Assembly: GCF_000739995.1 (NCBI RefSeq)
Contig: NZ_BBJX01000008.1
Coordinates: 62,001-126,000, forward strand
DNA: 64,000 bases
Direction of reading: 5' to 3'
Source of the DNA: Comamonas granuli NBRC 101663
GTDB lineage: Bacteria; Pseudomonadota; Gammaproteobacteria; Burkholderiales; Burkholderiaceae_C
The translations under genes and the position numbers were made by a program. Under the pieces are notes generated by a model that had not been told where the DNA came from, made no database searches, and saw nothing but the letters and a program-made list of their open reading frames with translations. Of this stretch, positions 3,860 to 62,237 are shown piece by piece; position 1 is the stretch's first letter; the number at the start of each line of letters is the position of its first letter.

Positions 3860-5941
3860 TCAGCGCACCCGCATACCCGGCTGCGCGCCGGGGAAGGGCT
3901 CCAGCACGTAGATACCGGGGTTGGCTTTCTCGTCCGCATGGCTGGCGGCCAGCACCATGCCCTCGGACACGCCGAACTTCATCTTGCGCGGCGCCAGGTT
4001 GGCCACCACCACGGTGAGCTTGCCCGTGAGCTGCTCGGGCTGGTAGCTGCTGGCGATGCCTGAGAACACGTTGCGCGTGCGGCCCTCGCCCACGTCGAGC
4101 GTGAGGCGCAGCAGCTTGGTCGAGCCCTCCACGGCCTCGCAGTGGACGATCCGGGCGATGCGCAGGTCGATCTTGGCGAAGTCGTCGATGGTGATGGTCG
4201 GGGCCAGCTCCTCGCCGCCGGGAGCTACGGTTTCGGTAGCTGCCTGCGCTTGCTCCGCCTGGGCTGGAGGCTCAAACAAGGCCTCCAGTTGCTTCGCATC
4301 CACGCGCTGCATCAGGTGCTTGTACTCGCCGATCCCATGGCCCTTGCCGAGCGCGGTCTGTGCGTCGGCAAAGGTGAAGGGCGCGACCTTCAGGAAGGCC
4401 TCGACCTGCGCGGCCAGCGCCGGCAGCACGGGCTTGAGCAGGATGGTGAGCAGGCGGAAGGCCTCGATGCAGGTGGTGCACACGTCCTGCAGGCGGCCTT
4501 CCATGCCCTCCTGCTTGGCCAGTTCCCAGGGCTTGTTCTGGTCCACGTAGGCGTTCACGCGGTCGGCCAGCAGCATGGTCTCGCGCAGGGCCTTGCCGTA
4601 TTCGCGCTCGGCCAGCAGTTCGATGATGGCGGGGGCACCTGCGCGCAGGTGCTCCAGCAGCGCGTCGCCGTCGGCCGAGACCTCGCCGAGCTGGCCGCCA
4701 AAGCGCTTGGCAATGAAACCGGCGGCGCGGCTGGCAATGTTGACGTACTTGCCGATCAGGTCGGCGTTGACGCGCGCCATGAAGTCTTCGGCGTTGAAGT
4801 CGATGTCTTCGTTGCGGGCCGACAGCTTGGTGGCCAGGTAGTAGCGCAGCCACTCGGGGTTCATGCCCAGCTTCAGGTACTTGAGCGGGTCCAGGCCCGT
4901 GCCGCGGCTCTTGCTCATCTTTTCGCCGTTGTTCACCGTGAGGAAGCCGTGCACGAACACCGCATCGGGCACCTTGCGGCCGCTGAACTTCAGCGTGGCG
5001 GGCCAGAACAGGGTGTGGAAGGTGACGATGTCCTTGCCGATGAAGTGGTACTGCTCGAGCTGCGGGTCGGCCATGTAGGCCTCGTAGTCCTGGCCGCGCT
5101 TAGTCAAAAGGTTCTTCAGCGAGGCGAGGTAGCCGATGGGGGCGTCGAGCCACACGTAGAAGTACTTGCCCGGCGCATCGGGGATCTCGATGCCGAAGTA
5201 GGGCGCGTCGCGCGAGATGTCCCAGTCGCCCAGGCCCTCGCTGGTGCTGCCGTCGGGGTTGGTGCGCACGGTGAACCATTCGCGCACCTTGTTGGCCACC
5301 TCGGGTTGCAGGCGGCCGTCCTGCGTCCAGTCTTCCAGGAAGGCCACGCAGCGCGGGTCCGACAGCTTGAAGAAGAAGTGCTCCGAGTGCTTGAGCACCG
5401 GCTTGGCGCCCGAGAGGGCGGAGTAGGGGTTGATGAGGTCGGTGGGCGCGTACACCGCGCCGCAGACCTCGCAGTTGTCGCCGTACTGGTCCTTGGCGTG
5501 GCACTTGGGGCATTCGCCCTTGATGAAGCGGTCGGGCAGGAACATGTTCTTCTCGGGGTCGAAGAACTGCTCGATGGTGCGCGTCTCGATCAGGCCGTTG
5601 GCCTTGAGGTCGCGGTAGATGTCCTGCGCGAGCTGGTGGTTTTCCGGGGCGTCGGTGCTGTGCCAGTTGTCGAACTGGATGTGGAAGCCGTCGAGGTACT
5701 GCTGGCGGCCGGCGGCGATGTCGGCCACGAACTGCTGCGGCGTCTTGCCGGCCTTCTCGGCGGCGATCATGATGGGCGCGCCGTGCGTGTCGTCGGCGCC
5801 GACGAAGTTCACCTCGTTGCCCAGCAGCCGCTGCGTGCGCACCCAGATGTCGGCCTGGATGTACTCCATGATGTGGCCGATGTGGAAATGGCCGTTGGCA
5901 TAGGGCAGGGCGGTGGTGACAAAGAGTTTGCGTGCGGGCAT
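3860..5941 (-). CDS. metG: Methionyl-tRNA synthetase
   Basis: This is the 693-residue class I aminoacyl-tRNA synthetase that charges tRNA-Met in the cytoplasm. The Rossmann catalytic domain carries HIGH at residues 20-23 and KMSKS near residue 339. The zinc-binding insert has the cysteine pairs CPKC and CEVC. A C-terminal EMAPII/Trbp111-like tRNA-binding domain (from [16 protein letters not shown] to the end) marks the long, dimeric E. coli-type form, and the length fits it. The linker just before that domain (about residues 554-573) is Ala/Gln/Glu-rich and coincides with a copy of the dispersed 60-nt element. The start is the only ATG that retains the full catalytic N-terminus. The gene converges on the repeat protein and is separated by 128 bp from the lipase gene. 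Confidence 0.97.
4222..4281 (+). repeat. Dispersed two-hairpin element, copy 1 (inside metG)
   Basis: This copy has AGCTA...TAGCT for the first hairpin, then TGCGCTTG at the expected distance, aligning without gaps to the intergenic copies. The second arm is degenerate (CCTGGGCT). It lies antisense to metG and corresponds to the low-complexity linker before the C-terminal tRNA-binding domain. Confidence 0.5.
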
Positions 5942-6069
5942 GGATGCGGCTCTCGAAGCAGGCTCGCCTGGCTGGCGAAACGGTCAATTTTACGGGCTGG
6001 GTCGCGCTGCCGGCGGGCCGGCCCGGGCAAAGGCCCAGGGCGGCGCGCGCTGGCCGCGCGCCGTGCGGA

Positions 6070-7317
6070 TCACGTGGCCGGGCGCTGGGGCAACTCGGCG
6101 CCCGTATCCTGCCAGCCAAAGAAGCGGCACACGGCGGCACGCTGCGCCAGCGTGTCGGCCCGGCCCAGGGCCATGAGCTCGCGCGTGTAGCCCTGTTCGA
6201 ACAGCAGGTAGCTGGCCAGGGCGGCGCTGCGCACGTCCGGGCTTTTGGCCGAGACGCCCAGCGCGCCCAGCATGGCGCGCACGGGCGTGGGCAATTCGGC
6301 CAGGTGGCGCGCGGCCACGGCGTCCAGGCGCTGCGAGGGGGCGATCACCAGCAGCTCGATGGGGCGCAGGCTGCTGTGCGCGCGCGCCTCGGGCGGGATC
6401 AGCGAGATCGTCTGGTTGATGCGCTGCATGCGCTCCACGTCCACCCACAGGGCGTCGAGGAAGATGTTGGACAGCGCGTGGCCCGCGATCTGTGCGAGCG
6501 AGGGATAGCCCTGCGAGGCGGCGGCCGAGCGGTCGTTCTGCGGCTCGTGCATGCGGCCCGCGCCCACCACGAGCACGCGCTCGGCGCCCAGGTGGATGGC
6601 CGGCGCGATCGGGGCCGACTGGCGCATGGAGCCGTCGCCGAAATACTCGGTGTGGCCGTCGATGTCGATGGCCGTGGCCGGAAAGACGAAGGGGATGGCC
6701 GCCGAGGCCAGCAGGTGCTCGTGCGTGATGCGGTCGCGCACGGCGCGGCGCTGCGAGCGCACCCAGGGCCCCAGGCGTTCGCCCGCCTCGAAAAATGTGA
6801 CGTGCTCGCCCGAGCTGTAGCTCGATGCGGTGACTGCCAGCGCCTGCAGGTGTCCCTGCTGGAACAGGCGCGGCAGGCGCACGAGCGGCACCAGCTTGAC
6901 CAGCAGGCTGGTCAGGGGCGTGTTGTCCAGCAGCGAGAGTGGCCGCATGCGGCGCCAGCGCACCAGCACCCAGCCGAGCGAGAGCAGCGTGAGCCAGCGC
7001 GCGCCGCTGCGCATCACGCCGATGGAGTCGGCGCGGTAGATGTGGTGCGCATGGAAGTTGCTCCACACCCGTGCGATGCGGCGCACCGCGCGGTCGAACT
7101 GGTCGGCGCCGCAGGCCAGCGCGGCCGCATTGATGGCGCCGGCCGAGGTGCCGGTGACGATGGGGAAGGGGTTGGGCTCCTTGCCGGCGCCGCAGACCAG
7201 GCGCAGGTCGGCAATGGCTTCGAGCACGCCCACTTGGTATGCGGCGCGTGCCCCGCCGCCGGTGAGCAGCAGGCCGGTGGCGGGGCGGTGCGGTGGCGGG
7301 GCGGCGGTCGACGGCAT
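6070..7317 (-). CDS. Patatin-like phospholipase
   Basis: This 415-residue protein belongs to the patatin-like acyl hydrolases, which cleave ester bonds of membrane lipids with a Ser-Asp dyad. The oxyanion-hole motif TGGGARAAY is at residues 19-27, the nucleophile elbow GTSAG has Ser58, and the catalytic aspartate is in the DGS motif near residue 225. I chose the ATG at 7317 because the lipase fold begins 15 residues later; an in-frame ATG 29 codons upstream would add only an arginine/alanine-rich tail. There is no signal peptide, so it is likely cytosolic or membrane-peripheral. It is divergent from apbC across 157 bp. The substrate cannot be told from sequence. Confidence 0.9.
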   Translation of the reverse strand: MPSTAAPPPHRPATGLLLTGGGARAAYQVGVLEAIADLRLVCGAGKEPNPFPIVTGTSAGAINAAALACGADQFDRAVRRIARVWSNFHAHHIYRADSIGVMRSGARWLTLLSLGWVLVRWRRMRPLSLLDNTPLTSLLVKLVPLVRLPRLFQQGHLQALAVTASSYSSGEHVTFFEAGERLGPWVRSQRRAVRDRITHEHLLASAAIPFVFPATAIDIDGHTEYFGDGSMRQSAPIAPAIHLGAERVLVVGAGRMHEPQNDRSAAASQGYPSLAQIAGHALSNIFLDALWVDVERMQRINQTISLIPPEARAHSSLRPIELLVIAPSQRLDAVAARHLAELPTPVRAMLGALGVSAKSPDVRSAALASYLLFEQGYTRELMALGRADTLAQRAAVCRFFGWQDTGAELPQRPAT

Positions 7318-7474
7318 GGTGTGGCTGCCAGTGTGCGCCAGCGCGCGGCGCCGGGCCGCGTGGGGGAAACCCGCATGCGGCATGCCCGCCACAGTGGCGC
7401 GCAAGTGCGCAATGCCAGTGGGGTTGTGGGGTGCTTCGCTAGACTTCGCTGTCCCCTACTTGATACATCAGACC

Positions 7475-12223: not shown

Positions 12224-14743
12224 ATGCCCCTCTCCGTGTTCTCCCTGGCCTGGCGCACCCTGTGGCGCGACTGGCGCGCCGGTGAGCTGCGCCTGCTGGC
12301 CGTGGCGGTCTGCCTGGCCGTCGCGGCGCTCAGTTCCGTGGCCTTTTTCGCCGACCGGCTCGAAGGCGGCCTGCAGCGCGATGCGCTGCAAATCCTCGGC
12401 GGCGACGCCGTCGTCGCCAGCGACAACCCCACGCCCGAGGCGTTCGTGCAGCACGCGCGCGACCTGGGCCTGGCCGCCGTCACCACCGTGGCCTTTCCCA
12501 CCATGGGCCGCGCCAGCGACGCCCGGGGCGGGGCCAGCCGCCTCGTCGCCTTCAAGAGCGTGGAGCCCGGCTACCCCCTGCGCGGCAGCCTGCGCGTGGC
12601 CGACGCCCCAGGCCAGGAGGGGCGCAGCACGCGCGACATTCCGGCGCCCGGCGAGGTGTGGGTGGACGCGCCCCTGCTCGACGCGCTGGGCCTGCAGATG
12701 GGCGACGAGCTGCTGCTGGGCGATGCCGCGCTGCGCATTGCGCGCATCATCGTCCTCGAACCCGACCGCGGCGCGGGCTTCATGGCCTTTGCCCCGCGTG
12801 TCATGGTCAACGCCGCCGACGTGGCCGCCACCGGCCTGGTGCAGCCCGCCAGCCGCCTGACCTACCGCTTTGCCGTGGCGGGCGAGCCGCGCGCCGTGCG
12901 CAGCTTCAGCACCTGGGCCGAGCAGCAGCTCGCGCACGGCAGCCTGCGCGGCGTGCGCCTGGAGTCGCTGGAGACGGGCCGCCCCGAGATGAAGCAGACG
13001 CTGGAGCGCGCGCAGAAATTCCTCAACCTCGTGGCCCTGCTCGCGGCCCTGCTCGCCGCCGTGGCCGTGGCCCTGGCCGCGCGCGGCTTTGCCGCCGGCC
13101 ACCTGGATGCCGCCGCCATGCTGCGCGTGCTGGGCCTGGGCCAGCGCGCCATTGCCCTGAGCTACGCGCTGGAGTTCCTGCTCGTGGGCCTGGCGGCCAG
13201 CGCCGCGGGCGTGCTGCTCGGCTGGGGCGTGCACTACGTGTTCGTGGCACTGCTGGCGGGCCTGGTCGAGTCCAGCCTGCCCGCGCCGGGGCTGTGGCCC
13301 GCGGCGCTGGGCCTGGGCGTGGGGGGCACGCTGCTGGCGGCCTTCGGCCTGCCGCCGGTGCTGCAGCTCGCCCAGGTGCCGCCGCTGCGCGTGATCCGGC
13401 GCGAGCTGGGCGCGCTGCGCCCGGCCTCGGCCGCCGTGCTGGGCCTGGGCGTGGCGGGCTTTGCCGCCCTGCTGCTCGTGGTCAGCAGCGACGTGCGGCT
13501 CGGGCTCATCGCCGTGGGCGGCTTTGCCGCGGCCGTGGCCCTGTTCGCCGTGCTGGGCTGGCTGGCCGTGTGGCTGCTGCGCCGCAGCGTGCGCGAGGCC
13601 ACCGCGCCGCGCTGGCTGGTGCTGGCCACGCGGCAACTGGCGGCGCGCCCGGCCTTTGCCGTGGTGCAGGTCAGCAGCCTGGCCGTGGGCCTGCTGGCGC
13701 TGGTGCTGCTGGTGCTGCTGCGCACCGACCTGATCGCAAGCTGGCGCCAGGCCACGCCGCCCGACGCGCCCAACCGCTTCGTCATCAACATCCAGCCCGA
13801 TCAGGCCGAGGCCTTCCGCCACATGCTCGGCGAGGCCGGCGTGCGCCGCTACGACTGGTACCCGATGTTCCGCGGCCGCCTCGTGGCCGTGAACGGGCAG
13901 CCCATCGCCCCGGACAGCTACCGCGAGGAGCGCGCCCAGCACCTGGTGGAGCGCGATTTCAACCTCTCCAACGCCGAGCAGCAGCCGCCGCACAACCAGG
14001 TCGTCGCCGGCCGCTGGACGCCGGGCGAACAGGGGGCCGCGAGCGTGGAAGAGGGCCTGGCCCAGACCCTGGGCCTCAAGCTGGGCGACACCCTGCGCTT
14101 TGACATGGCGGGCGTGCAGCAGGAGGTGCGCATCACCTCGCTGCGCAAGGTGGACTGGGCCTCCATGCGCGCCAACTTCTTCGTCATGTTCCCCGTGGCC
14201 CAGGTGCCCGATGCGCCGCTCACCTACCTGGCCGCCTACCGCGCGCCTGCGCAGGCGGGCTTCGACAACGCCCTCGTGCGCCAGTTTCCCAACGTCACCA
14301 ACGTGGACATGGGCGCCACGCTGCTGCAGGTGCAGAACGTGCTCGACCAGGTGGTGCGCGCCGTGGAATTCCTGTTCGGCTTCACCCTGGCCGCCGGGCT
14401 GGTGGTGCTGTTTGCCGCCGTCACCGCCACGCGCGAGGAGCGTGCGCGCGAGTACGCCATCATGCGCGCCCTGGGCGCCCCGGGCCGCCTGCTGCGCCAG
14501 GTGCAGCGCGCCGAGCTGGCGGGCGTGGGCCTGCTGGCCGGCCTGCTCGCCAGCAGCGCCGCCGTGGCCGTGGGCTGGGCGCTGGCGCGCTACGTGTTCG
14601 ACTTCGCCTGGACGGCGCCCGCGCTGGTGCCGCTGGCCGGCAGCCTGGCGGGCGCCGTGCTGGCGCTGCTGGCGGGCTGGTGGGGCCTGCGCGAGGTGCT
14701 GCAGCGCCCGGTGGTGGAGACACTGCGCAAGGCGGCCGAATGA
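12224..14743 (+). CDS. FtsX/MacB-type ABC permease, YbbP-like
   Basis: This 839-residue integral membrane protein has the YbbP layout. After a first membrane segment (about residues 20-40) comes a periplasmic MacB-like domain, then a block of about three membrane segments, further hydrophobic segments in the middle, a second periplasmic domain, and a final FtsX block near residues 710-830. Proteins of this class work with a LolD/YbbA-like ATPase in lipid or lipoprotein transactions or envelope signalling. No such ATPase gene is in the window, which is unusual because ybbA normally precedes ybbP. The start lies 5 bp after the solute-binding protein stop, so the two are probably co-transcribed. 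Its stop codon touches a copy of the dispersed 60-nt element. Confidence 0.88.
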   Translation: MPLSVFSLAWRTLWRDWRAGELRLLAVAVCLAVAALSSVAFFADRLEGGLQRDALQILGGDAVVASDNPTPEAFVQHARDLGLAAVTTVAFPTMGRASDARGGASRLVAFKSVEPGYPLRGSLRVADAPGQEGRSTRDIPAPGEVWVDAPLLDALGLQMGDELLLGDAALRIARIIVLEPDRGAGFMAFAPRVMVNAADVAATGLVQPASRLTYRFAVAGEPRAVRSFSTWAEQQLAHGSLRGVRLESLETGRPEMKQTLERAQKFLNLVALLAALLAAVAVALAARGFAAGHLDAAAMLRVLGLGQRAIALSYALEFLLVGLAASAAGVLLGWGVHYVFVALLAGLVESSLPAPGLWPAALGLGVGGTLLAAFGLPPVLQLAQVPPLRVIRRELGALRPASAAVLGLGVAGFAALLLVVSSDVRLGLIAVGGFAAAVALFAVLGWLAVWLLRRSVREATAPRWLVLATRQLAARPAFAVVQVSSLAVGLLALVLLVLLRTDLIASWRQATPPDAPNRFVINIQPDQAEAFRHMLGEAGVRRYDWYPMFRGRLVAVNGQPIAPDSYREERAQHLVERDFNLSNAEQQPPHNQVVAGRWTPGEQGAASVEEGLAQTLGLKLGDTLRFDMAGVQQEVRITSLRKVDWASMRANFFVMFPVAQVPDAPLTYLAAYRAPAQAGFDNALVRQFPNVTNVDMGATLLQVQNVLDQVVRAVEFLFGFTLAAGLVVLFAAVTATREERAREYAIMRALGAPGRLLRQVQRAELAGVGLLAGLLASSAAVAVGWALARYVFDFAWTAPALVPLAGSLAGAVLALLAGWWGLREVLQRPVVETLRKAAE

Positions 14744-14802
14744 TGCTATGGCTTCAGGAGCTGCCAGCGCTTGATGGATAAGCGCTAGAGGCCCAAAATG
14801 CT
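14743..14802 (+). repeat. Dispersed two-hairpin element, copy 2
   Basis: This copy begins on the last base of the permease stop codon. The second hairpin is a 7-bp stem, AGCGCTT with AAGCGCT around a 7-base loop. The first hairpin is reduced to GCT...AGC. GAGGCC follows, as in copy 6. Confidence 0.7.
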
Positions 14803-14889
14803 CCAAAATATGCCGACCGCCACGGCCGGCTGGGCCGGCTCTCTGCAGCAGCGCCCGGCGGGGGCACAGACCCAACAAGGAGGGAAACC

Positions 14890-16776: not shown

Positions 16777-16826
16777 GTGGCCGAGCATTGTAAGGGCAGG
16801 GCGCGGGCCGGCGGTGCGGCTGCCGG

Positions 16827-16886
16827 ATGCTCTTGTTTGTATAGCTGCCTGCGCTTGTCCGGTAAGCGCTGCAGCCCATTTTGATG
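16827..16886 (+). repeat. Dispersed two-hairpin element, copy 3
   Basis: The second hairpin GCGCTT...AAGCGC is perfect; the first, GCTCT...ATAGC, has one mismatch. Its 3' end (TTTTGATGC) lies one base from the tamB stop codon. Confidence 0.7.
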
Positions 16887-16887
16887 C

Positions 16888-19800
16888 TCAATCGTAGCGC
16901 ACGGTAAAGACCAGGTCGATGGCGCTTTGCTCGCCGGTCTGACCGCGCAGGGTCAGGCGCTGGGACAGGTCGTAGAAGATGTACAGCGTGCCCATGACGC
17001 CCGAGAGGCTGCGCTCGTAGCTCAGGTACAAGTCCTGCGAGATGCGCTTGCCCAGCGTGAGGGCGGCGCTGCTGGCCTCGCTGCCCGCCTGCGGGCCTTT
17101 GATGCCCACTTCGTCCAGGCCCAGGCGCTGGGCGATGCGGCTGCCCGGGTCGCTGCCGCCGCCCAGCAGGGCCAGCGCGGCCTGCTGCATGAGGGCGGCC
17201 TCGGCGCCGCCGGCGGCCGCGCTGCGGCCCAGCACGACCCAGGAGAGCTTTTCCGCGTCGGGCAGGTCGGGGTCGGCGTACAGGCGCACCTGCGGCGCCC
17301 GGGCCGTGCCGCTGACCTGCACGCCCGCGCGCACGCGGATGTGCGGGCGCAGGGCCAGGATGTCGAGCTGCGGGTCGTCGTAGGGGCCGTTCCAGCGCAG
17401 CAGGCCGCTTTCCACGTCCAGCTCCTGGCCCCAGGCGCGGTAGCGGCCCTGCTCGGTGCGCACCTCGCCGGTGACGCGCGGCGGCGCCTGCGCGGCGCCG
17501 CTGCGCTGCAGCTCCAGGCGGCCGCTCAGGCGCGTGGTCAGGCCGTGGCCTTGCAGCGCGAAGTCCGGGCCCAGGTCCAGCGTGAGCGCGATGTCGGGGG
17601 CGCGCGCGGGCGCCACGCGGCCCGGCGCCGCGGGCGCGCCGCCCTGCCGCGGCGCGGCGCTGGTGTGCACGACCACGTCCGGGCCGAGCGCGGGCGCGCC
17701 GGCCTCGGGTAGCAGCAGGGTGGCGCGGTCGGCGCGCAGCGCGCCGCGCAGCGTGAACTGGCCGTCCTGCAACTGCGCGTGCAGGTCGCCCGAGACGCTG
17801 AGCTGCCGGTCCGCGCGCACCAGCAACTGCAGGGCCTGCGCCTGGGCGCGCAGGTCCAGGGCGATGCGGCCGTCCGCCCAGGACAACTGGCCCGTGCCGG
17901 CGAGGCGCCCGCCGTCGGCCGGGGCCGCCGTGCGGTTGCCGCTGTAGCCCGGGATGCGCGCGCGGCTGCCCGGGCCGCCGCGCCACAGCAGCTCGGTGAT
18001 CTCCAGGCGCTCGCCCTGCAGGCGGGCGCGCAGGCGGCCGTCGCGCAGGTCCACGCCGTCGAGCACCGAGCGCACGGTGAACTGGTCGGCCGCGAGCTGG
18101 CCGTTCCAGCGCGGTGCGCTGCGCGTGCCCGAGAGGCGCGCGTCGGCCTGCAGGCTGCCGCGCACGCGCCAGCCCGGCGGGGCGAAGGCGGTCCACACGC
18201 CCAGGTCCGGCAGGTCGGCGCGCACCTGGCCGTCCAGGGGCGCGCCGGCGGGCCAGAGCCAGCCGCTGGCGCTGCGCTCCAGGCGCGTGCGCGCCTCGGC
18301 CTGCACGCGGCCTGCGCGCTCGCTGTCCCAGTGCAGGCGGGCGAGCAGTGCGTCGCCGTCGGCCTCGATCTGCAGCGCCGCCTGGCGCAGGCCGGCCGTG
18401 GCGGCGGGCGCGCTTACGGCGTTGGTGGCGGCGGCGTCGGCGGCGCTCAGGCGCAGGTCGCCGCTGGCGCGCTGCAGGCTGATGCGGGCGCGCAGGCTGC
18501 TGGCCGCGGCGATGTCCCAATGGCCGTCGAACACCAGGTCGCCCGCCAGGCCCAGGCGTGCGAGCGCGCCCGCCCCCCCGTCCGGGGCCCAGGCGTCAGC
18601 CCAGGCGAGCGGCAGGCCCTGCAGCGTGCCCTGGCTGCGCCACTGCGGCGCCCCGTCGGCGGCCTGGGCGTACTGCAGGGGCTTCCAGCGCAGCAGCGCG
18701 CTGCTGCCGGCGGGCGCGGGCGCGTGCAGGCGCGCTGCGCCCGCGCCCGCCTGCACCTGCAGGCGCGGCTGCGTCTGCAGCGCCAGGGCCAGCGGCCCGG
18801 CCAGTTCCAGGCGCCAGGGGGCGCGCGCGCCGGCGGGCGCGGCCTGGGCCTGCAGGGCGTCCAGCTCGGCCTGCCAGCGGCCGGCGCCCTGGGCCGTGGC
18901 GCTGGCGCGCAGTTGCAGGCGCGCCTGCTGCGCGCCCTGGCGCAGCGCGCCGTCGATCTCCACCTCGGCCCGGGGCAGGGTGGCGCGCAGGCTGGCGCGC
19001 GTCTCCAGCAGCTCGATGGCGGCGGCCGGCGCTGGCGGCTGCAGCCGCAGGCGCGGGCTGCTCCATTGCGCCTGCAGCGTGGCGCTGCCGGGGGGGCGGG
19101 CGGCGGCCTGCCAGGGCTGCTGCAGGGCCTGCCAGCCGCCCTGCCACTGCGCCTGCAGCGTGGCGCCCCCCTGCAGGCGCGTGGCCAGCAGGGGGGTGGG
19201 CAGGCCCTGCAGCAGCGGGCCGGGCAGGGCGGCAAGCCACTGCTGGGCCAGGGCGGCGTCCGCCAGTTGCAGGTCCAGGGCGCCGCTGCCGGTGTGCGCG
19301 GCGATGCTGCCGTCCAGCGCCAGCGTGGCGCCCGGCACGCGGGCCTGCACGCGGCCGCGGGCCTGGGGGGCGGCGGTGTCGATCTGCAGGGCCTGCGCCT
19401 GCAGCCGGGCCTGCAGGGCGGTGAGCTCCAGCCGGGCGAGGCTGAGCTGCGTGCCCTGCCAGCGGCCCTGGGCCGCCAGGTGCAGCGCGCCGGCGCGGCG
19501 CACGGCGGGCACGGGGCTGCGCAGGTCGGCGCTGAAGTCCACGCCGCCATCGGCCTGCAGGGCTGCGCTGGCGCTGCCGCTCACCGGGGCGGACGGGAAC
19601 TGGCTGTGCCACTGCGCCGGGTCGATGCCGCGCACCTGCACCTGGCCCTGCAGCGCCTGGCGTGCGGGTGTGTAGCGGCCCTGGGCCGTGGCGCTGCCGC
19701 CGCCGGCGCGCAGGTGGGCGTGCTCCAGGGTCCAGGTGCCGTCCTGCAGGTGCGCCTGGGCCTGCAGCGCGGCCAGGGGCAGGCGCTGGCGGTCCCAGGG

Positions 19801-20790
19801 ACCGGGGCGGGCGTTGCGCAGGTCGGCCTCGACCTGCCAGCCGTCGCCGTCCGCGGGGGCCAGCCGGGCGCTGCCGTCCAGTTGCGTGGCGGGCGCCTGG
19901 GGCCAGAGCGCGGCCAGGTCCAGGGCCTGCAGCGTGGCCTGGGCCTGCCGCAGGGGCTGCGCGGCCCAGGGGGCGATGTGCGCCTGCAGGTCGGCGTGCA
20001 CGGGCGCCGCGGCCTGTGCTGCGCTGCGCACGCGCGCCTGCACGGCGACCTGCGCGTCGGCGCCGGCCAGCGTGCCCTGGGCCTGGGCCTCGGCCTCCCA
20101 GGGCCGGGCGGGGCCGGCGCCGGGCACGGCGGCCGCGACGCGGCCCTGCACGCGCGCCTGCAGCGCCAGGGGCGCGTGCGCCTGCAGCGTGGCCTGCAGG
20201 GCGTAGCGGCCCTGCGCGATGTCCAGGGTGGCGATGTCCAGGTGGTGCTGGCTGCCGTCATAGCGGTAGTGCGCGGCCAGGCCGCCGAGCTCCAGCGGGC
20301 GCGCGCCGGCCCAATGGATGCGCTGCACGCGCAGCGGCAGCTCCACGGGCAGCGGCAGCGTGAGTTGCTGCGGCGGCATGGGCGGCGCGGTGCTGGCGGC
20401 GGGCGGTGCGTCCTGCGGCGTGAGGGTCAGGCGCGCGGCCTGCAGCGTGCTGAACTGCAGGCGGCCCTGCAGCAGCGGCGCGAGCTGCCAGCGCAGTTCG
20501 GCGTCCTGCACCTGCAGCTCCAGCGTGGGGCTGCGCCAGCGCAGTGCGGCAATGCGCCCGCCCGCGCGCAGCGTGCCGTCCACGCCCTCAGCCTCCAGGG
20601 TCTGGTCCGCGGGCAGGGCGCGCGCGGCCCAGGCGAGCAGCGTGGCCAGCGAGCCCGGCGTGCCCGCCCACCACCACAGCCCCCCGGGCAGCGCGAGCAG
20701 GCCCAGGGCCAGTAGCGCGGCAGCGCGCGCCGCCCGGCGCCAGGGGCGGCGGGGCGGGGCAGCAGGGCGGGGTGGGTCGTGCGGGGGCAT
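16888..20790 (-). CDS. tamB: Translocation and assembly module protein TamB
   Basis: This 1300-residue protein is anchored in the inner membrane by one N-terminal segment (about residues 22-44). A very long periplasmic region, extremely Ala/Gln/Leu-rich, has the repeated amphipathic strands of the AsmA/TamB superfamily. The C-terminal DUF490 domain is clear, with the stretches SRIAQRLGLDEVGIKG and LSYERSLSGVMGTLYIFYDL and the final strand IDLVFTVRYD. TamB forms a hydrophobic groove bridging the two membranes and works with TamA in outer-membrane protein insertion or phospholipid transport. tamA lies 107 bp upstream on the same strand, with a partial copy of the dispersed element between them. 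The length is at the family norm. Confidence 0.95.
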   Translation of the reverse strand: MPPHDPPRPAAPPRRPWRRAARAAALLALGLLALPGGLWWWAGTPGSLATLLAWAARALPADQTLEAEGVDGTLRAGGRIAALRWRSPTLELQVQDAELRWQLAPLLQGRLQFSTLQAARLTLTPQDAPPAASTAPPMPPQQLTLPLPVELPLRVQRIHWAGARPLELGGLAAHYRYDGSQHHLDIATLDIAQGRYALQATLQAHAPLALQARVQGRVAAAVPGAGPARPWEAEAQAQGTLAGADAQVAVQARVRSAAQAAAPVHADLQAHIAPWAAQPLRQAQATLQALDLAALWPQAPATQLDGSARLAPADGDGWQVEADLRNARPGPWDRQRLPLAALQAQAHLQDGTWTLEHAHLRAGGGSATAQGRYTPARQALQGQVQVRGIDPAQWHSQFPSAPVSGSASAALQADGGVDFSADLRSPVPAVRRAGALHLAAQGRWQGTQLSLARLELTALQARLQAQALQIDTAAPQARGRVQARVPGATLALDGSIAAHTGSGALDLQLADAALAQQWLAALPGPLLQGLPTPLLATRLQGGATLQAQWQGGWQALQQPWQAAARPPGSATLQAQWSSPRLRLQPPAPAAAIELLETRASLRATLPRAEVEIDGALRQGAQQARLQLRASATAQGAGRWQAELDALQAQAAPAGARAPWRLELAGPLALALQTQPRLQVQAGAGAARLHAPAPAGSSALLRWKPLQYAQAADGAPQWRSQGTLQGLPLAWADAWAPDGGAGALARLGLAGDLVFDGHWDIAAASSLRARISLQRASGDLRLSAADAAATNAVSAPAATAGLRQAALQIEADGDALLARLHWDSERAGRVQAEARTRLERSASGWLWPAGAPLDGQVRADLPDLGVWTAFAPPGWRVRGSLQADARLSGTRSAPRWNGQLAADQFTVRSVLDGVDLRDGRLRARLQGERLEITELLWRGGPGSRARIPGYSGNRTAAPADGGRLAGTGQLSWADGRIALDLRAQAQALQLLVRADRQLSVSGDLHAQLQDGQFTLRGALRADRATLLLPEAGAPALGPDVVVHTSAAPRQGGAPAAPGRVAPARAPDIALTLDLGPDFALQGHGLTTRLSGRLELQRSGAAQAPPRVTGEVRTEQGRYRAWGQELDVESGLLRWNGPYDDPQLDILALRPHIRVRAGVQVSGTARAPQVRLYADPDLPDAEKLSWVVLGRSAAAGGAEAALMQQAALALLGGGSDPGSRIAQRLGLDEVGIKGPQAGSEASSAALTLGKRISQDLYLSYERSLSGVMGTLYIFYDLSQRLTLRGQTGEQSAIDLVFTVRYD

Positions 20791-20850
20791 GTGCTTTCAA
20801 AAAGAGAGCGGCTGGCGCTTGATTCTCAAAGGATTGAAAATAAAAAGTAC
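20791..20850 (+). repeat. Dispersed two-hairpin element, copy 4 (partial)
   Basis: This degenerate copy abuts the tamB start codon, so it lies in the tamB leader in antisense orientation. TGCTTT, AGC and GGCTGGCGCTTGAT fall at the same spacings as in other copies, but the right arm is eroded. A further fragment resembling the left arm (TTTTGATAGCT) occurs at about 20887-20897 beside the tamA stop. Confidence 0.45.
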
Positions 20851-20897
20851 CTGAATTGCTTGTGAATGAAGCGCGAGAAGCTCATGTTTTGATAGCT

Positions 20898-26547: not shown

Positions 26548-26671
26548 AAGCAAGCGCACCGCCCTTCAGGCGCTGCGCGCAGGGGAACGCAGCCTTCGCG
26601 GCGGGCTTGCCCTGGCCTGGGCCCGTTTCATGCCGCGTGGGTGGGGTGCAGTGCCCCAGATCGCTGATACG

Positions 26672-26731
26672 CGGTTTTGAGGCCTGTGGCGCCCGCAGAC
26701 AGGGCGCCAGCAGCTATTGAAAGAATAGCGT
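26672..26731 (-). repeat. Dispersed two-hairpin element, copy 5
   Basis: This is the best-folded copy. GCTATT pairs with AATAGC around 5 bases, and TGGCGCCC pairs with GGGCGCCA (8 bp) around 7 bases. Here the second stem keeps pairing although GCGCTT has become GCGCCC, with AAGCGC becoming GGGCGC. It begins one base after the DUF1841 stop codon, in the same direction as that gene. Confidence 0.75.
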
Positions 26732-26732
26732 T

Positions 26733-27167
26733 TCAGTCCCGCGTGGCCAGGCGTTGCACCTGCGCCACGTAGGCCTCGCCGTCGGGCGCGCGCCCGGCGC
26801 GCTGGGCCTCCCAGAGCATCTGGCCCAGGCAGTCCATGGCCGCGTGGTGCGCGTCGTGCAGTGAATCCAGCCTTCTGGCGAGCAATTCCACCGCCTGGCG
26901 GATGCCGCGCGGCTGGTCGATGCTGCACTGCTCGCTGATCGACAGGTGCATGGACAGGTGCAGGAACGGGTTGGTGCGGCCCGGCGCCTCGTCGTAGTTG
27001 CGCGCCAGGGCGGCGTCCACGTCGGCCAGCTCGGCGTGGTACTCGGGGTGCTCGGCGATCCACAGGCTGGCCAGGGTTTCTATGGCCTCCATGGGGCTGC
27101 CCGCCAGTGCCTTGGCGTGTGTGGCACAGAAGAAGCGGCGGACGTCGGCTTGGCTGGGCTGGAACAT
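26733..27167 (-). CDS. DUF1841 family protein
   Basis: This 144-residue protein begins MFQPSQADVRRFFC, the usual start of DUF1841 proteins, and has the conserved middle HPEYHAELAD and NPFLHLSMHLSISEQ. It is all-helical in appearance and cytoplasmic, without a known function. Its stop codon is followed one base later by copy 5 of the dispersed element. It is divergent from the LysE-type exporter. Confidence 0.92.
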   Translation of the reverse strand: MFQPSQADVRRFFCATHAKALAGSPMEAIETLASLWIAEHPEYHAELADVDAALARNYDEAPGRTNPFLHLSMHLSISEQCSIDQPRGIRQAVELLARRLDSLHDAHHAAMDCLGQMLWEAQRAGRAPDGEAYVAQVQRLATRD

Positions 27168-27251: not shown

Positions 27252-27890
27252 ATGGACCTCCATACCTGGCTCGCATTTCTCGCCGCTTCCTGCCTGATCG
27301 CGGTTTCGCCCGGCTCGGGGGCCGTGCTTTCCATGAGCCATGGCCTGAACTACGGCGTGCGCAAGACCGGGGCCACCATCCTGGGCCTGCAGCTCGGCCT
27401 GTTGCTGGTGCTGGTGATCGCCGGGGCCGGCGTGGGCTCCTTGCTGCTGGCGTCGGAGACGGCCTTCGGCGTGGTCAAGGTTCTGGGCGCGTGCTACCTC
27501 ATCTGGGTGGGCCTGAGCCAATGGCGCGCAGGCGCCGCCGCGCCGCAGCAGGCGCAGGGGGAGGACGGCAGCGGCACCTGGCAGCGGCGCTGCCTCACGG
27601 GCTTTCTGACGAACGCCACCAACCCCAAGAGCATCGTCTTCATGGTCGCCGTGCTGCCCCAGTTCCTGACGCCCGCGCGCCCGCTGTGGACGCAGCTCCT
27701 GGTGCTCGCGGCCACCTCCGTGGCGGTGGACGTGGTGGTCATGCACGGCTATGCCGCGGGCGCCAGCCAGTTGCGCCGCTTCCTGCAGAGCGCGCGGGCG
27801 CTGCGCATGCAGAACCGCGTCTTCGGCGGCCTGCTCATGGCCGTGGGGGCCGGGCTGTTCTTTGTGCGGCGCAGTGCGCAAAGTGTTTGA
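27252..27890 (+). CDS. LysE/RhtB family amino-acid exporter
   Basis: This 212-residue inner-membrane protein has about six hydrophobic segments and the N-terminal family motif SPGSGAVLSMSHGLNYG (residues about 19-35). The loop LTGFLTNATNPKSIVF in the middle is also typical. LysE/RhtB proteins export amino acids or related small metabolites. The substrate is not predictable. Its stop codon is followed immediately by copy 6 of the dispersed element. Confidence 0.93.
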   Translation: MDLHTWLAFLAASCLIAVSPGSGAVLSMSHGLNYGVRKTGATILGLQLGLLLVLVIAGAGVGSLLLASETAFGVVKVLGACYLIWVGLSQWRAGAAAPQQAQGEDGSGTWQRRCLTGFLTNATNPKSIVFMVAVLPQFLTPARPLWTQLLVLAATSVAVDVVVMHGYAAGASQLRRFLQSARALRMQNRVFGGLLMAVGAGLFFVRRSAQSV

Positions 27891-27950
27891 ATGCTATAGG
27901 TTGGATAGCTGCTGGCGCTTGCTGGGTAAGCGTTAGAGGCCTGTTTGATG
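27891..27950 (+). repeat. Dispersed two-hairpin element, copy 6
   Basis: This copy begins at the first base after the LysE-type stop codon. GCTAT pairs with ATAGC (7-base loop), GCGCTT with AAGCG(T), then GAGGCC. It can serve as the reference copy for the family. Confidence 0.75.
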
Positions 27951-44626: not shown

Positions 44627-45742
44627 TCAGGCAAACACGCCGGCCGTCTCCTGCATGCGTGCCGATACCTCGCCCAGGTGGTGCAGGGTGTCGCCCCAGG
44701 TCATTTCGAGCTGGGTGAGCGTCTTGAAGTAGTGGCTGACGATGTACTCGTCGGTCACGCCGATGCCGCCGTGCATCTGCACGCACTGCTGGCCCACGAA
44801 GCGTATGGACTGGCCCAGTTGCACCTTGGCCTGGGCCAGGGCGCGGCGGCGCTCGGCCGCGGGGGCGCCGAGCTTGAGGCTGGCGTAGTAGCTCATGGAG
44901 CGCGCCAGTTCAAGCTGCATCTTCACGTCGGCCGCGCGGTGGCGCAGGGCCTGGAAGCTGGCGATGGGCACGCCGAACTGCTTGCGCTGGTTCAGGTAGT
45001 CGAAGGTGACGGTGGCGGTCTGGTCCATCACGCCCACGGCGTAGGCGCAGGCACAGGCGATGCCGGTGTCCACAGCCAGCTCCAGCGCGGCCAGGCCGTC
45101 GGTGGTGAGCAGGGTGGCGGGGGCCTGGTCCAGCACCAGCTCGGCGGCGCGGCTGCCGTCCTGCGTGCCGTAGCCGCGCGCGGCCACGCCGCTGGCGGCG
45201 CGCTCGACGAGGAACAGGGCGATGCGCCCGTCCCAGTGCGCGGGCACGATGAAGGCGTCGGCCTGGTCACCGGCGGGAACTATGCTTTTGCTAGCTGTCA
45301 GCGCATATCCTGCGGGCGTTTGCACCGCTTTTGCTTCGCAAACGTCGAGGCGGTAGCGCGCCTTGCGCTCCTGGTGGGCGAGCACCACCAGGGCCTCGCC
45401 GCTGGCCATGCGCGGCAGCCAGGCGGCCTGCACGGCTGCGGGGGCATGCTGCGCCAGCACGCGGGTGGCCACGTAGGTCTGCGCCAGCGGCTCGAGCACG
45501 ATGCCGCGGCCCAGCTCCTCCATGGCGACCATGGCGTCCACCGCGCCCTGGCCCAGGCCGTCGTGCTGCTCGGGCACCGTGAGGGCGGTCAGGCCCAGTT
45601 CGGCCAGCTCGCCGTAGGCTGCGCGGTCAAAGCCGCCCGCGGCGACGATGGCGCGCCGGCGCTCGAAGCTGTAGCCCTTGCCCACCCACTTGCGCACGGC
45701 ATCGCGCAGGGACTGCTGGTCGTCGGAAAAATCGAAATCCAT
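44627..45742 (-). CDS. Acyl-CoA dehydrogenase, pimeloyl-CoA dehydrogenase small-subunit type
   Basis: This 371-residue FAD enzyme of the acyl-CoA dehydrogenase family has the usual helical N-terminal domain, a beta domain and a C-terminal helical domain with RKQFGVPIASFQAL and QMHGGIGVTDEY. Together with the larger paralogue 44 bp upstream it matches the PimC/PimD pair thought to oxidise dicarboxylyl-CoA esters such as pimeloyl-CoA; the assignment is from family resemblance. The stretch at about residues 135-155 overlaps copy 9 of the dispersed element yet still fits the family pattern (GYALTASKSIV). An intrinsic terminator follows. Confidence 0.88.
   Translation of the reverse strand: MDFDFSDDQQSLRDAVRKWVGKGYSFERRRAIVAAGGFDRAAYGELAELGLTALTVPEQHDGLGQGAVDAMVAMEELGRGIVLEPLAQTYVATRVLAQHAPAAVQAAWLPRMASGEALVVLAHQERKARYRLDVCEAKAVQTPAGYALTASKSIVPAGDQADAFIVPAHWDGRIALFLVERAASGVAARGYGTQDGSRAAELVLDQAPATLLTTDGLAALELAVDTGIACACAYAVGVMDQTATVTFDYLNQRKQFGVPIASFQALRHRAADVKMQLELARSMSYYASLKLGAPAAERRRALAQAKVQLGQSIRFVGQQCVQMHGGIGVTDEYIVSHYFKTLTQLEMTWGDTLHHLGEVSARMQETAGVFA
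45277..45336 (+). repeat. Dispersed two-hairpin element, copy 9 (inside acyl-CoA dehydrogenase)
   Basis: CTA...TAG, AGCTG, CAGCGC and GGGCG occur at the family spacings, antisense to the gene. The encoded residues still fit the acyl-CoA dehydrogenase consensus, so chance or adaptation cannot be excluded. Confidence 0.35.
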
Positions 45743-47747: not shown

Positions 47748-48329
47748 ATGAAGAACATCGTGATTTTGATCTCTGGCGGCGGCTCCAACATGGCGGCCAT
47801 CGTGCGCGCGGCCGAGCAGCAGCACTGGGGCCAGCGCCTGGGCGCGCGCGTGGCGGCCGTGGTGAGCAACAAGGCCGACGCCAAGGGGCTGGTGTTCGCG
47901 CGCGAGCACGGCGTCGCCACCGAGGTGCTGGAGCACCAGGGCTTTGCCAGCCGCGAGGCCTTCGACACCGCGCTGCAGCAGGTCATAGACCGGTACGACC
48001 CCGCCGTCGTCGTGCTGGCCGGCTTCATGCGCATCCTCTCGCCGGGCTTCGTGGCGCATTACGCGGGGCGGCTGCTCAACATTCATCCTTCGCTGCTGCC
48101 CGCCTTCACCGGGCTGCACACGCACCAGCGCGCCCTGGACGCGGGCTGCAAGTTCGCCGGCTGCACGGTGCACCAGGTCACGGCCGAGCTGGACGTGGGC
48201 CCCATCGTCGAGCAGGCCGTGGTTCCCGTGCTGCCGGGCGACACGGCCGCCACCCTGGCGGCCCGGGTGCTCACGCAGGAGCATGTGATCTACCCGCGCG
48301 CCGTGGCCAATTTGCTATCAACCATGTAG
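47748..48329 (+). CDS. purN: Phosphoribosylglycinamide formyltransferase 1 (GAR transformylase)
   Basis: This 193-residue enzyme transfers the formyl group of 10-formyltetrahydrofolate to glycinamide ribonucleotide in purine synthesis. It has the phosphate loop ISGGGSNM (8-15), the catalytic Asn and His in [12 protein letters not shown], and the catalytic Asp in [13 protein letters not shown]. The last five codons and the stop codon (LLSTM-TAG) lie within copy 10 of the dispersed element, so the native C-terminus appears to have been replaced or trimmed. There is no strong ribosome-binding site before the ATG. Confidence 0.95.
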
Positions 48330-48371
48330 CTTGCAGCGCTGGCTGGACGGGCGCTCAAGCCATTTTTCGTC
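48312..48371 (+). repeat. Dispersed two-hairpin element, copy 10
   Basis: GCTA pairs with TAGC and AGCGC with GCGCT; the loop between the second arms is longer than in other copies. It supplies the last five codons and the stop codon of purN, in the same sense. Confidence 0.65.
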
Positions 48372-48463
48372 CTCTCCATACTGCCGCGGACGGCGCGCGC
48401 GGCCGCCAGGGGGTGGGGGCCGGTTAGCATGGATGCCCGGCAAGCGTCTTGGAGGGCAGGAGC

Positions 48464-50343: not shown

Positions 50344-51663
50344 ATGCATCCCACCGCCCTCCTGCAAGCCTGCGCCGAACTGGTGCGCCTCACCCTCACC
50401 CTGGAGCACCCGGCCGACGCCGTGGTCTCGCGCTTTTTCCGCGACCACCGCCACCTTGGCCCGCGCGAGCGTGCCGCCCTGGCCGAGACGGCCTACGCCG
50501 TGCTGCGCAAGAAGCTGCTGTTCGACCACCTGGCCCCCTCGGGCAGCGGCCCGCGTGAGCGGCGCCTGGCCATCCTGGGCTTTGCCCAGTGGCAGGACGA
50601 AGAGGCGCGCCGCAGCCACCCGCAGGCGGCGCACGGCCCGCGCGACTTCCTCAAGGCGGCGCTGAACGAGCGTGAAAAGCAGTGGCTCGACCAGTGCGAC
50701 GCCATTGCCGAGGACGACCTGCTCGAGCGCCACCGCCACAACCTGCCCGAGTGGCTGGCCGAGCCGCTCAAGGCGCAACTGGGCACGGAGTTCTGGCCCC
50801 TGGTGCAGGCCTTGTCCACCAGCGCGCCGCTGGACCTGCGGGTCAATATCCTGAAGGAAAAACGCGAGCTGGTGCAGAAGGAGCTTGCGCAAGCAGCTAT
50901 CAAAACAGAAGCAACACCGTACTCGCCCTGGGGCCTGCGCGTGCAGGGCAAGCCCGCGCTCGCCAAGCTGCCCGCCTTCGTGCGCGGCGCCATCGAGGTG
51001 CAGGACGAAGGCTCCCAGTTGCTGGCCCTGCTGCTGGACGCCAAGCGCGGCGAAATGGTGGTGGACTTCTGCGCGGGTGCCGGCGGCAAGACCCTAGCCA
51101 TCGGCGCGACCATGCGCAGCACCGGGCGGCTGTACGCCTTCGACGTGTCCGCCCACCGGCTCGACGCCCTCAAGCCGCGGCTGGCGCGCAGCGGGCTGTC
51201 CAATGTGCACCCTGCGGCCATTGCGCACGAGCGCGACGAGCGCGTCAAGCGCCTGGCGGGCAAGATCGACCGCGTGCTGGTCGATGCCCCCTGCTCCGGC
51301 CTGGGCACGCTGCGCCGCAACCCCGACCTCAAGTGGCGCCAGTCGCCCCAGGCGCTCGCGGAGCTGGTGGCCAAGCAGACGGCCATCCTGGAGAGCGCGG
51401 CGCGCCTGCCCAAACCGGGCGGGCGCCTGGTGTACGCCACCTGCAGCCTGTTGCCGCAGGAGAACGAGGCGATTGCCGAGGCCTTCACCCAGGCGCACGG
51501 CGACTACGAACTGCTGGAGGCGGGCGCGCTGCTCACCCAGCTCAAGGTGCCGCAGGCCGCCAGCCTGTGCGCCGGCGGCGAGGACGGCCAGCGCTACCTG
51601 CGCCTGTGGCCGCACCGCCATCAGACCGACGGCTTCTTCGCCGCCGTCTGGCAGCGCCGGTGA
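50344..51663 (+). CDS. RsmB/NOP family RNA (cytosine-5) methyltransferase
   Basis: This 439-residue SAM-dependent enzyme has the motif I region VVDFCAGAGGKTLAIGA (near residue 240), motif IV with DAPCSGLGTLRRNPD and motif VI with the catalytic cysteine in YATCSLLPQEN. It methylates C5 of cytosine in RNA, probably 16S rRNA, though the target is not proven because the N-terminal domain is not a clear NusB-like domain. The ATG at 50344 fits the family start. A half copy of the dispersed element overlaps residues about 181-190. Confidence 0.92.
   Translation: MHPTALLQACAELVRLTLTLEHPADAVVSRFFRDHRHLGPRERAALAETAYAVLRKKLLFDHLAPSGSGPRERRLAILGFAQWQDEEARRSHPQAAHGPRDFLKAALNEREKQWLDQCDAIAEDDLLERHRHNLPEWLAEPLKAQLGTEFWPLVQALSTSAPLDLRVNILKEKRELVQKELAQAAIKTEATPYSPWGLRVQGKPALAKLPAFVRGAIEVQDEGSQLLALLLDAKRGEMVVDFCAGAGGKTLAIGATMRSTGRLYAFDVSAHRLDALKPRLARSGLSNVHPAAIAHERDERVKRLAGKIDRVLVDAPCSGLGTLRRNPDLKWRQSPQALAELVAKQTAILESAARLPKPGGRLVYATCSLLPQENEAIAEAFTQAHGDYELLEAGALLTQLKVPQAASLCAGGEDGQRYLRLWPHRHQTDGFFAAVWQRR
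50885..50914 (-). repeat. Dispersed two-hairpin element, copy 11 (left half, in methyltransferase gene)
   Basis: Only the first 30 bases match (GCT, TTTTGATAGCTGCTTGCGC); the right half is absent. It is antisense to the host gene, and the encoded residues (AQAAIKTEA) fit a variable position of the family. Confidence 0.35.
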
Positions 51664-61683: not shown

Positions 61684-61704
61684 GCCCTACCGAGGTACGC
61701 CGCC

Positions 61705-62187
61705 ATGCCCCACGCCCCCGCGCTCCTGCGTCTTGCCGCCATGCTGGCTGCGCTGTGCGGCCTGCTGGCGGGCCCGGCGGACGCTGCCAGCGCAGCGCCA
61801 CTGCCCAGCCCGGGCGATCCCGAGGCCGCCCATCTGTGGCCGCGCGTGTTCTATACCCCGCAGCAGCGCGCCAGCATAGAAGCCGCACGCAGGCTACCCC
61901 CCGGCGGCACGGACCAGCCCACTGCTGCCCTTGTCACCCAGGCGGCCCCCACCTTCCAACTGGACGGCCTGGCCCTGGGCCGCAAGAACGCCACCGCCTG
62001 GATCAATGGCCAGATGCTGCAGCACGGCGAGACCTACGCGGGCCGGACGGTGCACATCGACCAGAGCGCAGTGCGCCTGCGCCAGAGCGGCGAGAGCGAC
62101 ATCGTGCTGCGCCCCGGCCAGCAGGTCAGCGACACCGGTGCGGTGCTCGGCGATGTGGTGGCCCCCGGAGTCGTGCGGAAGAAATAG
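61705..62187 (+). CDS. MshK/PilP-like periplasmic pilus protein
   Basis: This 160-residue protein has a Sec signal peptide (cleavage near ADA at about residue 27) and a C-terminal domain with short strands: LDGLALGRKNATAWINGQML and GETYAGRTVHIDQSAVRL. These resemble the PilP/GspC/MshK homology region, which contacts the secretin. It lacks a lipoprotein box. The stop codon is at the 3' end of copy 12 of the dispersed element. Confidence 0.72.
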   Translation: MPHAPALLRLAAMLAALCGLLAGPADAASAAPLPSPGDPEAAHLWPRVFYTPQQRASIEAARRLPPGGTDQPTAALVTQAAPTFQLDGLALGRKNATAWINGQMLQHGETYAGRTVHIDQSAVRLRQSGESDIVLRPGQQVSDTGAVLGDVVAPGVVRKK

Positions 62188-62237
62188 GGCCGTAACGCCC
62201 TGTTCATAAGCGCGAAAAGCTATGAAAACAATAGCAT
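62178..62237 (-). repeat. Dispersed two-hairpin element, copy 12 (spans a start codon)
   Basis: GCTAT pairs with ATAGC (7-base loop); GCGCTT and GGGCGTTA with GGCC follow at the family spacings. It fills the whole 34-bp gap between the MshK-like and pseudopilin genes, antisense to both, and includes the pseudopilin start codon and first five codons. Confidence 0.65.

What the first reader, a model, noticed from the sequence alone, without database searches (positions are those of the whole stretch)
4222..62237. A family of dispersed 60-nt two-hairpin elements with covarying stems
Up to twelve sequences (4222, 14743, 16827, 20791, 26672-, 27891, 39924-, 43821, 45277, 48312, 50885-, 62178-) line up over about 60 nt with little or no gap. 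The core is GCTAT, a 7-base loop, ATAGC, a short spacer, GCGCTT, a 7-base loop, AAGCGC, then GGCC. In the second stem both arms change together: AGCGCTT/AAGCGCT (14743), TGGCGCCC/GGGCGCCA (26672-), ACGCT/AGCGT (39924-), GCGCTT/AAGCGC (16827). Such compensation argues for selection on folding and against chance similarity. No protein is encoded and I see no target-site duplication, so this looks like a REP/RPE-like non-autonomous element. I cannot tell whether it has been described.
Basis: seen in the sequence. Interest (0 to 1): 0.85.

Follow-up and report, generated by a model that had tools for sequence, protein, structure and literature searches.

The report
67-bp uptake-signal-like motif, Comamonadaceae chromosomes
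Hundreds of copies of one 67-base DNA signature are scattered through the chromosomes of a bacterial family, some of them inside essential genes where they arose without changing the length of the gene, which makes the signature look like a self-DNA tag for natural transformation rather than a jumping hairpin element.

Summary
The repeat is real and larger than reported, but its reading changes. A position matrix finds 120 copies above 10 bits in 779 kb of the window's genome; reversed sequence gives none above 0.

The covariation claim does not hold. Over 120 copies, helix 1 shows none and helix 2 little. Sequence is conserved, not pairing.

'No protein is encoded' is wrong for part of the family: 27 of 120 copies lie in genes. 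Trimmed genes hold 22, synonymous shuffles a mean of 1.35. In ileS, moaC, cca, rfbB, rsmB and rfbD, some relatives carry the motif and others encode the same length without it. So these copies were gained or lost by substitution in place, not by insertion.

No copy lay beside 10 Y1-transposase loci examined. Best explanation: a long DNA-uptake-sequence-like signal (confidence 0.5). Some Acidovorax and Verminephrobacter are naturally transformable, the latter with signs of selective uptake (PMC4212676, passages). The uptake function is inferred, not shown.

The parts
4220..4286 (+). motif copy inside metG (gene on the - strand, 3860-5941), antisense
   Evidence: matrix 23.0 bits; Pfam tRNA-synt_1g; copies in metG of G422, G004 and G012, none in G002 and G005
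14741..14807 (+). intergenic motif copy starting at the stop codon of gene 12206-14743
   Evidence: R1 59.8 bits, matrix 73.6
16825..16891 (+). intergenic motif copy between a tRNA gene (16705-16776 -) and the stop codon of gene 16888-20790 (-)
   Evidence: R1 69.2 bits, matrix 77.3
20789..20855 (+). intergenic motif copy, partial
   Evidence: matrix 22.2 bits
   Evidence: matrix 47.0 bits, R1 18.2
   Evidence: matrix 16.6 bits, R1 10.9
26667..26733 (-). intergenic motif copy starting at the stop of gene 26733-27167 (-); by eye also occupied, diverged, in the five relatives aligned
   Evidence: R1 55.6 bits, matrix 44.3, alignment
27889..27955 (+). intergenic motif copy starting at the stop of gene 27333-27890
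   Evidence: R1 70.9 bits, matrix 77.5; by eye a copy, in part decayed, in the 13 relatives aligned
39919..39985 (-). in-frame sense motif copy inside ileS (39802-42684 -), coding the segment before KCERCWHY
   Evidence: R1 58.7, matrix 51.6; by eye motif-like at the same site in 14 of 16 relatives, no indel; Pfam
45275..45341 (+). motif copy inside an acyl-CoA dehydrogenase gene (44627-45742 -), antisense
   Evidence: matrix 34.7, R1 20.8, Pfam; copy of 39.8 bits in the G012 orthologue
48310..48376 (+). motif copy over the stop of gene 47748-48329
   Evidence: R1 52.0, matrix 53.4
50850..50916 (-). motif copy inside rsmB (50344-51663 +), antisense
   Evidence: matrix 30.2; copies in G422, G004 and G012, none in G002 and G005, 0 gap columns; Pfam RsmB
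62173..62239 (-). motif copy beside and slightly over the 3' end of called gene 61705-62187 (+)
   Evidence: R1 51.6, matrix 59.4

Best explanation
The family is a chromosome-wide DNA signal of about 67 bp, conserved as sequence. It works like a DNA uptake sequence: the type IV pilus competence machinery prefers free DNA carrying it. Fragments with it are then taken up and recombined more often, so the motif accumulates and is kept wherever the genome tolerates it, often just after stop codons and also inside genes at permissive codons. Shown here: the motif, its copy number, its distribution, its sequence-level conservation, and its gain or loss in place inside several genes. From the literature: natural transformation of Acidovorax temperans, A. 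facilis and Verminephrobacter eiseniae, with signs of selective uptake in the last. Inferred: that this motif is what the uptake machinery recognises.
For: (1) 120 copies in 779 kb, reversed control 0. (2) Pairing is not conserved: C21 is invariant while its partner G5 is A in 21 of 120; C28 is kept in 119 of 120 while its partner G44 is C in 26; G29 is invariant while C43 is G in 17. (3) 22 in-gene hits at 12 bits or more in 623 kb of trimmed genes; synonymous codon shuffles give means of 0.35 sense and 1.0 antisense over 20 replicates. (4) In-place gain or loss: rfbB, rsmB and rfbD orthologues in G004, G012 and G422 score 17 to 64 bits, in motif-poor G002 and G005 -28 to -47, with 0 gap columns. 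ileS, moaC and two cca sites behave alike. The rare Ile codon ATA (1.9% of Ile codons) is kept in the first cca site in 20 of 23 genomes. (5) Both orientations; no replichore bias in the 150 best hits of G004 if base 1 is the origin (84 of 150, P 0.16); even spread over tenths of the chromosome (P 0.52). (6) Permissive siting: convergent 2.23, codirectional 1.08, divergent 0.37 per kb of intergenic DNA. (7) Information content of 63.7 bits against the 13.7 needed to locate the copies, as drive but not ordinary site selection would give. (8) PMC4212676 (passages): transformation through type IV pili; the effect of added foreign DNA levels off, read there as selective binding. (9) blastn of the consensus matches 30 of 72,556 plasmid records and no phage record; this is insensitive to diverged copies and had no chromosomal control.
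Against: No uptake or binding experiment exists. At 67 bp it is far longer than DUS (10-12) or USS (about 30). Density is about one per 6.5 kb, against one per 1.1-1.5 kb in Neisseria (PMC2397512, passage). In PMC4212676 A. temperans took no DNA from three other Acidovorax species, although the motif consensus hardly differs between the groups that I compared, so the motif cannot explain that barrier. A. defluvii and A. delafieldii, which carry the pattern, gave no transformants there. Even spacing is weak: P 0.04 in G004 and in C33, 0.40 in C34 and in the window. Competence genes were not compared between motif-rich and motif-poor genomes. In-gene sites were chosen because G000 matches there, so the 41 against 3 synonymous count is partly circular; the orthologues in other species are not. 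43 stretches of IMG/VR contigs carry the exact core and hold 60 copies in 429 kb, so viral or misassigned DNA is not free of it. Some genomes with many hits have an unlike ileS segment (for example G393, G347, G144, G086, G176).
Confidence: 0.5

Rival explanations
1. Binding site of a chromosome-organising or replication-linked protein (like matS, SlmA sites, or gyrase/IHF sites of REPs; recalled examples), selected at DNA level and evolved in place.
For: DNA-level sequence conservation, dyad symmetry of the consensus, in-place evolution inside genes, both orientations, chromosome-wide spread.
Against: 63.7 bits of conservation against 13.7 needed. No ori/ter gradient and no strand bias among the 150 best hits of G004. 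Two genomes of the same genus, G002 and G005, have no copy above 0 bits in the roughly 70 kb examined of each and 1 and 7 weak R1 hits in all.
Confidence: 0.2
2. A REP/RPE-like mobile element, possibly RAYT-driven, that inserted long ago, mostly behind stop codons, and is now immobile.
For: Copy-like length and excess conservation. 42 of 92 placed intergenic copies have an end within 6 nt of a stop codon, 19 of 92 within 6 nt of a start. A regular array of copies on an integron-bearing plasmid. G005 has a shorter spacer at site 16825.
Against: In-gene copies keep the length of orthologues lacking the motif at ileS, moaC, cca, rfbB, rsmB and rfbD; those in rfbB and cca overlap segments conserved in the genomes compared. 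No linkage to the 10 PF01797 loci examined. In the G426/G012 pair, three aligned sites without a listed hit in the other genome have about the same length (867/867, 875/882, 828/809), and the one read shows a decayed copy. Hairpins not conserved.
Confidence: 0.12
3. Templated overwriting: copies convert similar resident sequence through ectopic recombination or annealing of single-stranded DNA, without changing length.
For: Length-neutral presence and absence in several genes, full-length including the tail.
Against: Loops vary between copies. Changes in rfbB are scattered over synonymous positions rather than in a block. No donor or enzyme identified.
Confidence: 0.1
4. An RNA-level 3'-end element: terminator, mRNA stabiliser or structured RNA.
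For: Siting at gene 3' ends, two potential stem-loops, a T-run in the tail of many copies.
Against: Sense and antisense copies are about equal (24 and 22 codirectional). Pairing not conserved. No Rfam match. In the one site read a separate G+C-rich inverted repeat with T-run lies downstream. 15 of 27 in-gene copies are antisense.
Confidence: 0.06

Closest known systems
DNA uptake sequence (DUS) of Neisseriaceae
   Same: Dispersed, in and between genes, frequent at permissive sites, related dialects within one family, inverted pairs at terminators (PMC3630211 and PMC2397512, passages).
   Different: 67 bp instead of 10-12; about one per 6.5 kb instead of one per 1.1-1.5 kb; different family; no receptor (ComP) or uptake effect tested.
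Uptake signal sequence (USS) of Pasteurellaceae
   Same: G+C-rich core with A/T tracts (PMC7811141, passages); accumulates inside coding sequence (recalled).
   Different: Unlike sequence, about half as long; no 10-11 nt A/T phasing found in the present motif (column permutations 1143/5000 as high).
REP elements and RAYT transposases
   Same: Hundreds of short palindrome-bearing repeats, mostly behind genes.
   Different: Pairing not conserved, no linkage to the transposase loci examined, in-place copies inside genes.
Rickettsia palindromic elements (RPE; recalled, not searched)
   Same: In-frame copies inside proteins.
   Different: RPEs add residues (recalled); here six genes compared show no change of length.
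Beta-proteobacterial repeat element BRE (PMC3110155, section 14 read)
   Same: Small repeat in Bordetella and Comamonadaceae, some copies inside coding sequence.
   Different: 75-91 bp, 69% G+C and tandem in Bordetella, at most 29 copies in a genome, 1 in Acidovorax sp. JS42. Its sequence alignment is a figure and was not seen.

Membership tests
REP / RAYT system | conserved palindrome whose folding is maintained | tested here: not met
   120 copies, helix 1 no covariation, helix 2 weak
REP / RAYT system | cognate RAYT gene flanked by the repeat | tested here: inconclusive
   10 of 42 PF01797 places of the genus were held with about 1.5 kb on each side where the contig allows; best R1 hit 13.1 bits; only three (L079, L080, L081) have frames of RAYT-like length
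REP / RAYT system | gain by insertion (occupied and empty sites) | tested here: inconclusive
   in-gene copies length-neutral at six genes; G426/G012 pair no site short of one unit among those aligned; intergenic spacers too variable
DUS / USS | strong over-representation, both orientations, chromosome-wide | tested here: met
DUS / USS | presence inside genes at permissive codons without change of length | tested here: met
   (dapF, metG and murE show gaps in some relatives)
DUS / USS | core-genome bias, absence from recently acquired DNA | tested here: inconclusive
   one motif-poor stretch of C34 was listed and judged by sequence starts only; no core/accessory test; few plasmid and no phage matches by an insensitive search; copies in IMG/VR stretches
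DUS / USS | host naturally transformable | not tested
DUS / USS | motif raises uptake or transformation | not testable with these tools
   needs an assay
DUS / USS | short motif, 10-30 bp | tested here: not met
   conserved block of 67-69 columns, flat outside
structured RNA family (Rfam) | match to a family model | tested here: not met
   window, gathering: one tRNA only; 5 loci with copies, E up to 1, none
BRE | 75-91 bp, often tandem, about 69% G+C (in Bordetella) | tested here: not met
   67-69 bp, mean gaps of 4.8-7.1 kb between copies, 46-57% G+C in the 7 best window copies

The most novel reading that the evidence does not exclude
The repeat spreads by overwriting: an unknown templated process rewrites partly similar resident DNA into the 67-bp sequence without changing length, even inside essential genes, giving a selfish sequence that moves without inserting.
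Probability: 0.1. Interest if true: 0.95.

Novelty: new variant of a known kind. Interest (0 to 1): 0.8.

Why it matters
The papers seen here describe uptake sequences for Neisseriaceae and Pasteurellaceae (PMC7811141 abstract in a listing; PMC3630211 passages). A third, independent and much longer one would let the question of how such sequences arise and spread (molecular drive or selection) be tested in a transformable environmental genus. Motif-rich and motif-poor species of one genus offer a natural contrast. It also warns that sequence-conserved DNA signals with dyads can be mistaken for covarying hairpins.

Tried and rejected
Rejected: a covarying hairpin family; RAYT-driven REP, as far as tested; an Rfam family; BRE. 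An early idea that the family was seeded from ileS (note) was dropped when moaC, cca and rfbB behaved the same way. The ileS copy ranks 55th against 57 others at non-stem positions, a typed consensus of relatives' ileS 36th; its own shuffles never reach it (0/5000), and its first loop ranks first.

Led nowhere: literature searches for the repeat, its letters or the host names, for DUF1010 and for uptake sequences in these genera; A/T helical phasing; reading insertion from intergenic spacers. Alignment A2 was made but not used. Six motif deserts were sized and the genes of two adjoining ones listed, not annotated.
Full report
WHAT WAS CHECKED. The window is part of contig C27 of a 3.5-Mb genome. 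Genomes sharing its genus label include contigs whose lengths equal those of named records (Acidovorax sp. 210-6; a Burkholderiales MAG). A pattern with 25 fixed bases occurs 13 times in the genome and 0 times read backwards. A covariance model from 18 copies scores 150 copies in the genome, which is the cap, and 7 strong ones in the window. In 397 family genomes, with at most 13 candidates scored in each, 159 of 388 good genomes and 66 of 126 genera have a hit at E up to 0.001. In the 30 genomes it is abundant (137-150 hits) in 15 of 18 of the genus, the window's own included; the other three, G002, G005 and G008, have 1, 7 and 3 hits, and the 12 of other families 0-1. The named-record scan listed 80 loci of 119 stretches and stopped at its limit: Acidovorax, Giesbergeria, Simplicispira, Diaphorobacter, Paracidovorax, Rhodoferax, Polaromonas, Ramlibacter, Ottowia, and MAGs labelled Rubrivivax and Gammaproteobacteria, among others.

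HOW MANY AND WHERE. A 67-column matrix from 52 intergenic copies finds 120 copies above 10 bits in 779 kb (window plus contigs C33 and C34, about a fifth of the genome); reversed sequence gives none above 0 bits. Conservation covers columns 1 to about 69 and is flat beyond. The window holds 13 copies. Of 120 copies 27 lie in genes (12 sense, 15 antisense), and per kb of intergenic DNA copies are six times denser between convergent than between divergent genes. Genes are my own codon-usage calls.

SEQUENCE, NOT PAIRING. The matrix carries no pair terms, so its 120 copies are a fair test, although it was trained on hits of a hairpin model, which if anything favours pairing. In helix 1 the 3' arm letters AGC are nearly fixed and the 5' arm varies without compensation; pairs form in 0.805 of cells against 0.814 when arms are permuted. 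In helix 2 the figure is 0.797 against 0.779 (30/2000), and two pairs show a few double changes (P about 0.03 each). In the 27 in-gene copies neither helix exceeds permutation.

COPIES INSIDE GENES ARE MADE OR LOST IN PLACE. Trimmed genes (660, 623 kb) hold 10 sense and 12 antisense hits at 12 bits or more; 20 synonymous codon shuffles average 0.35 and 1.0. In ileS the motif encodes the segment before KCERCWHY; by eye 14 of 16 relatives aligned have it, and motif-poor G002 and G005 encode the same length with unlike, G+C-richer DNA. Burkholderiales of other families have about the same length there, with a few residues' variation (the 30 loci saved of 80 genomes searched). A flanking pattern found the segment in 157 of 397 family genomes; by eye about 46 of the listed rows are motif-like, each from a genome with at least 4 hits, while some genomes with many hits have an unlike segment. 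In moaC 20 sequences spanned the site, 10 of them motif-like; at the two cca sites 23 and 24 sequences show presence and absence; no gaps were seen. Further sites: rfbB, rsmB and rfbD score 17-64 bits in G004, G012 and G422, and -28 to -47 in G002 and G005, with 0 gap columns. dapF (G422 71, G004 70 bits) and metG (33-38 bits in three) lack the motif in G002 and G005, with 1-5 gap columns there, and G012 metG has an insertion. murE is weak: 16 in G422, 21 in G012, -2.7 in G004, -40 in G002. One search used the 30 loci saved of 61 places matched. At 7 sites in 6 genes, each against one relative lacking the motif, synonymous differences at informative columns favour the motif 41 to 3 in G000, against 698 to 1991 for shifted controls; since the sites were picked for matching in G000, the motif in the other species is the stronger evidence.

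STABILITY. In 160 kb of G426 against 200 kb of G012, about 107 kb align in pieces over 1.5 kb. Most copies in fully aligned sites are shared. Three fully or nearly fully aligned sites have no listed hit in the other genome but about the same length; the one read shows a decayed copy. Several copies lie in unaligned stretches. By eye the site at 27889 holds a copy, in part degenerate, in the 13 relatives aligned.

MECHANISM. A sequence signal that arises in place inside genes, in both orientations, with far more conservation than needed to find it (63.7 against 13.7 bits) and without replichore bias in the 150 best hits of G004, behaves like uptake sequences, which pile up by biased uptake and recombination. 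That the host group is transformable by type IV pili, with evidence of selective binding in V. eiseniae, comes from PMC4212676 (passages). The link between motif and uptake is inference, and the species barrier reported there is not explained by a motif that the species share. Among the 8 papers listed and the 4 I saw none that names an uptake sequence for these genera; only PMC4212676 was opened, in passages.

VERDICT. Observation largely right, interpretation mostly not borne out, finding more interesting than claimed: a candidate third uptake-sequence system, new in length and family.

Noticed in passing
L423 2986-3052 and 1790-1856 (E. coli plasmid NZ_KJ541071.1): Two cassettes annotated DUF1010, in an array with sul1 and qacEdelta1, carry the motif (63.5 and 60.5 bits). 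They may have come from Comamonadaceae chromosomes.
   Followed up: partly
L424 2349-4011 (plasmid LC623924.1): Six motif copies at 319-320 bp spacing, largely in a stretch without annotated genes, between resistance cassettes.
   Followed up: no
L423 2834-3151 (-): Pfam DUF1010 (PF06231) matches residues 34-99 and the motif covers about residues 34-56, so part of this protein family may be the translation of a DNA signal.
   Followed up: partly
L081 1159-1872 (-), G000 contig C34: A single RAYT-like Y1 transposase beside what by eye looks like gltB; matches with open frames of 234-373 aa occur in 21 of 26 genomes of the genus, motif-poor G002, G005 and G008 included.
   Followed up: partly
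G000 contig C34 182620-231200: A stretch of nearly 49 kb with one motif copy, holding export-type and polysaccharide-type genes as judged by eye from sequence starts.
   Followed up: no
window 20789-20900: Two motif copies on opposite strands overlap by 22 bases in one intergenic region.
   Followed up: no
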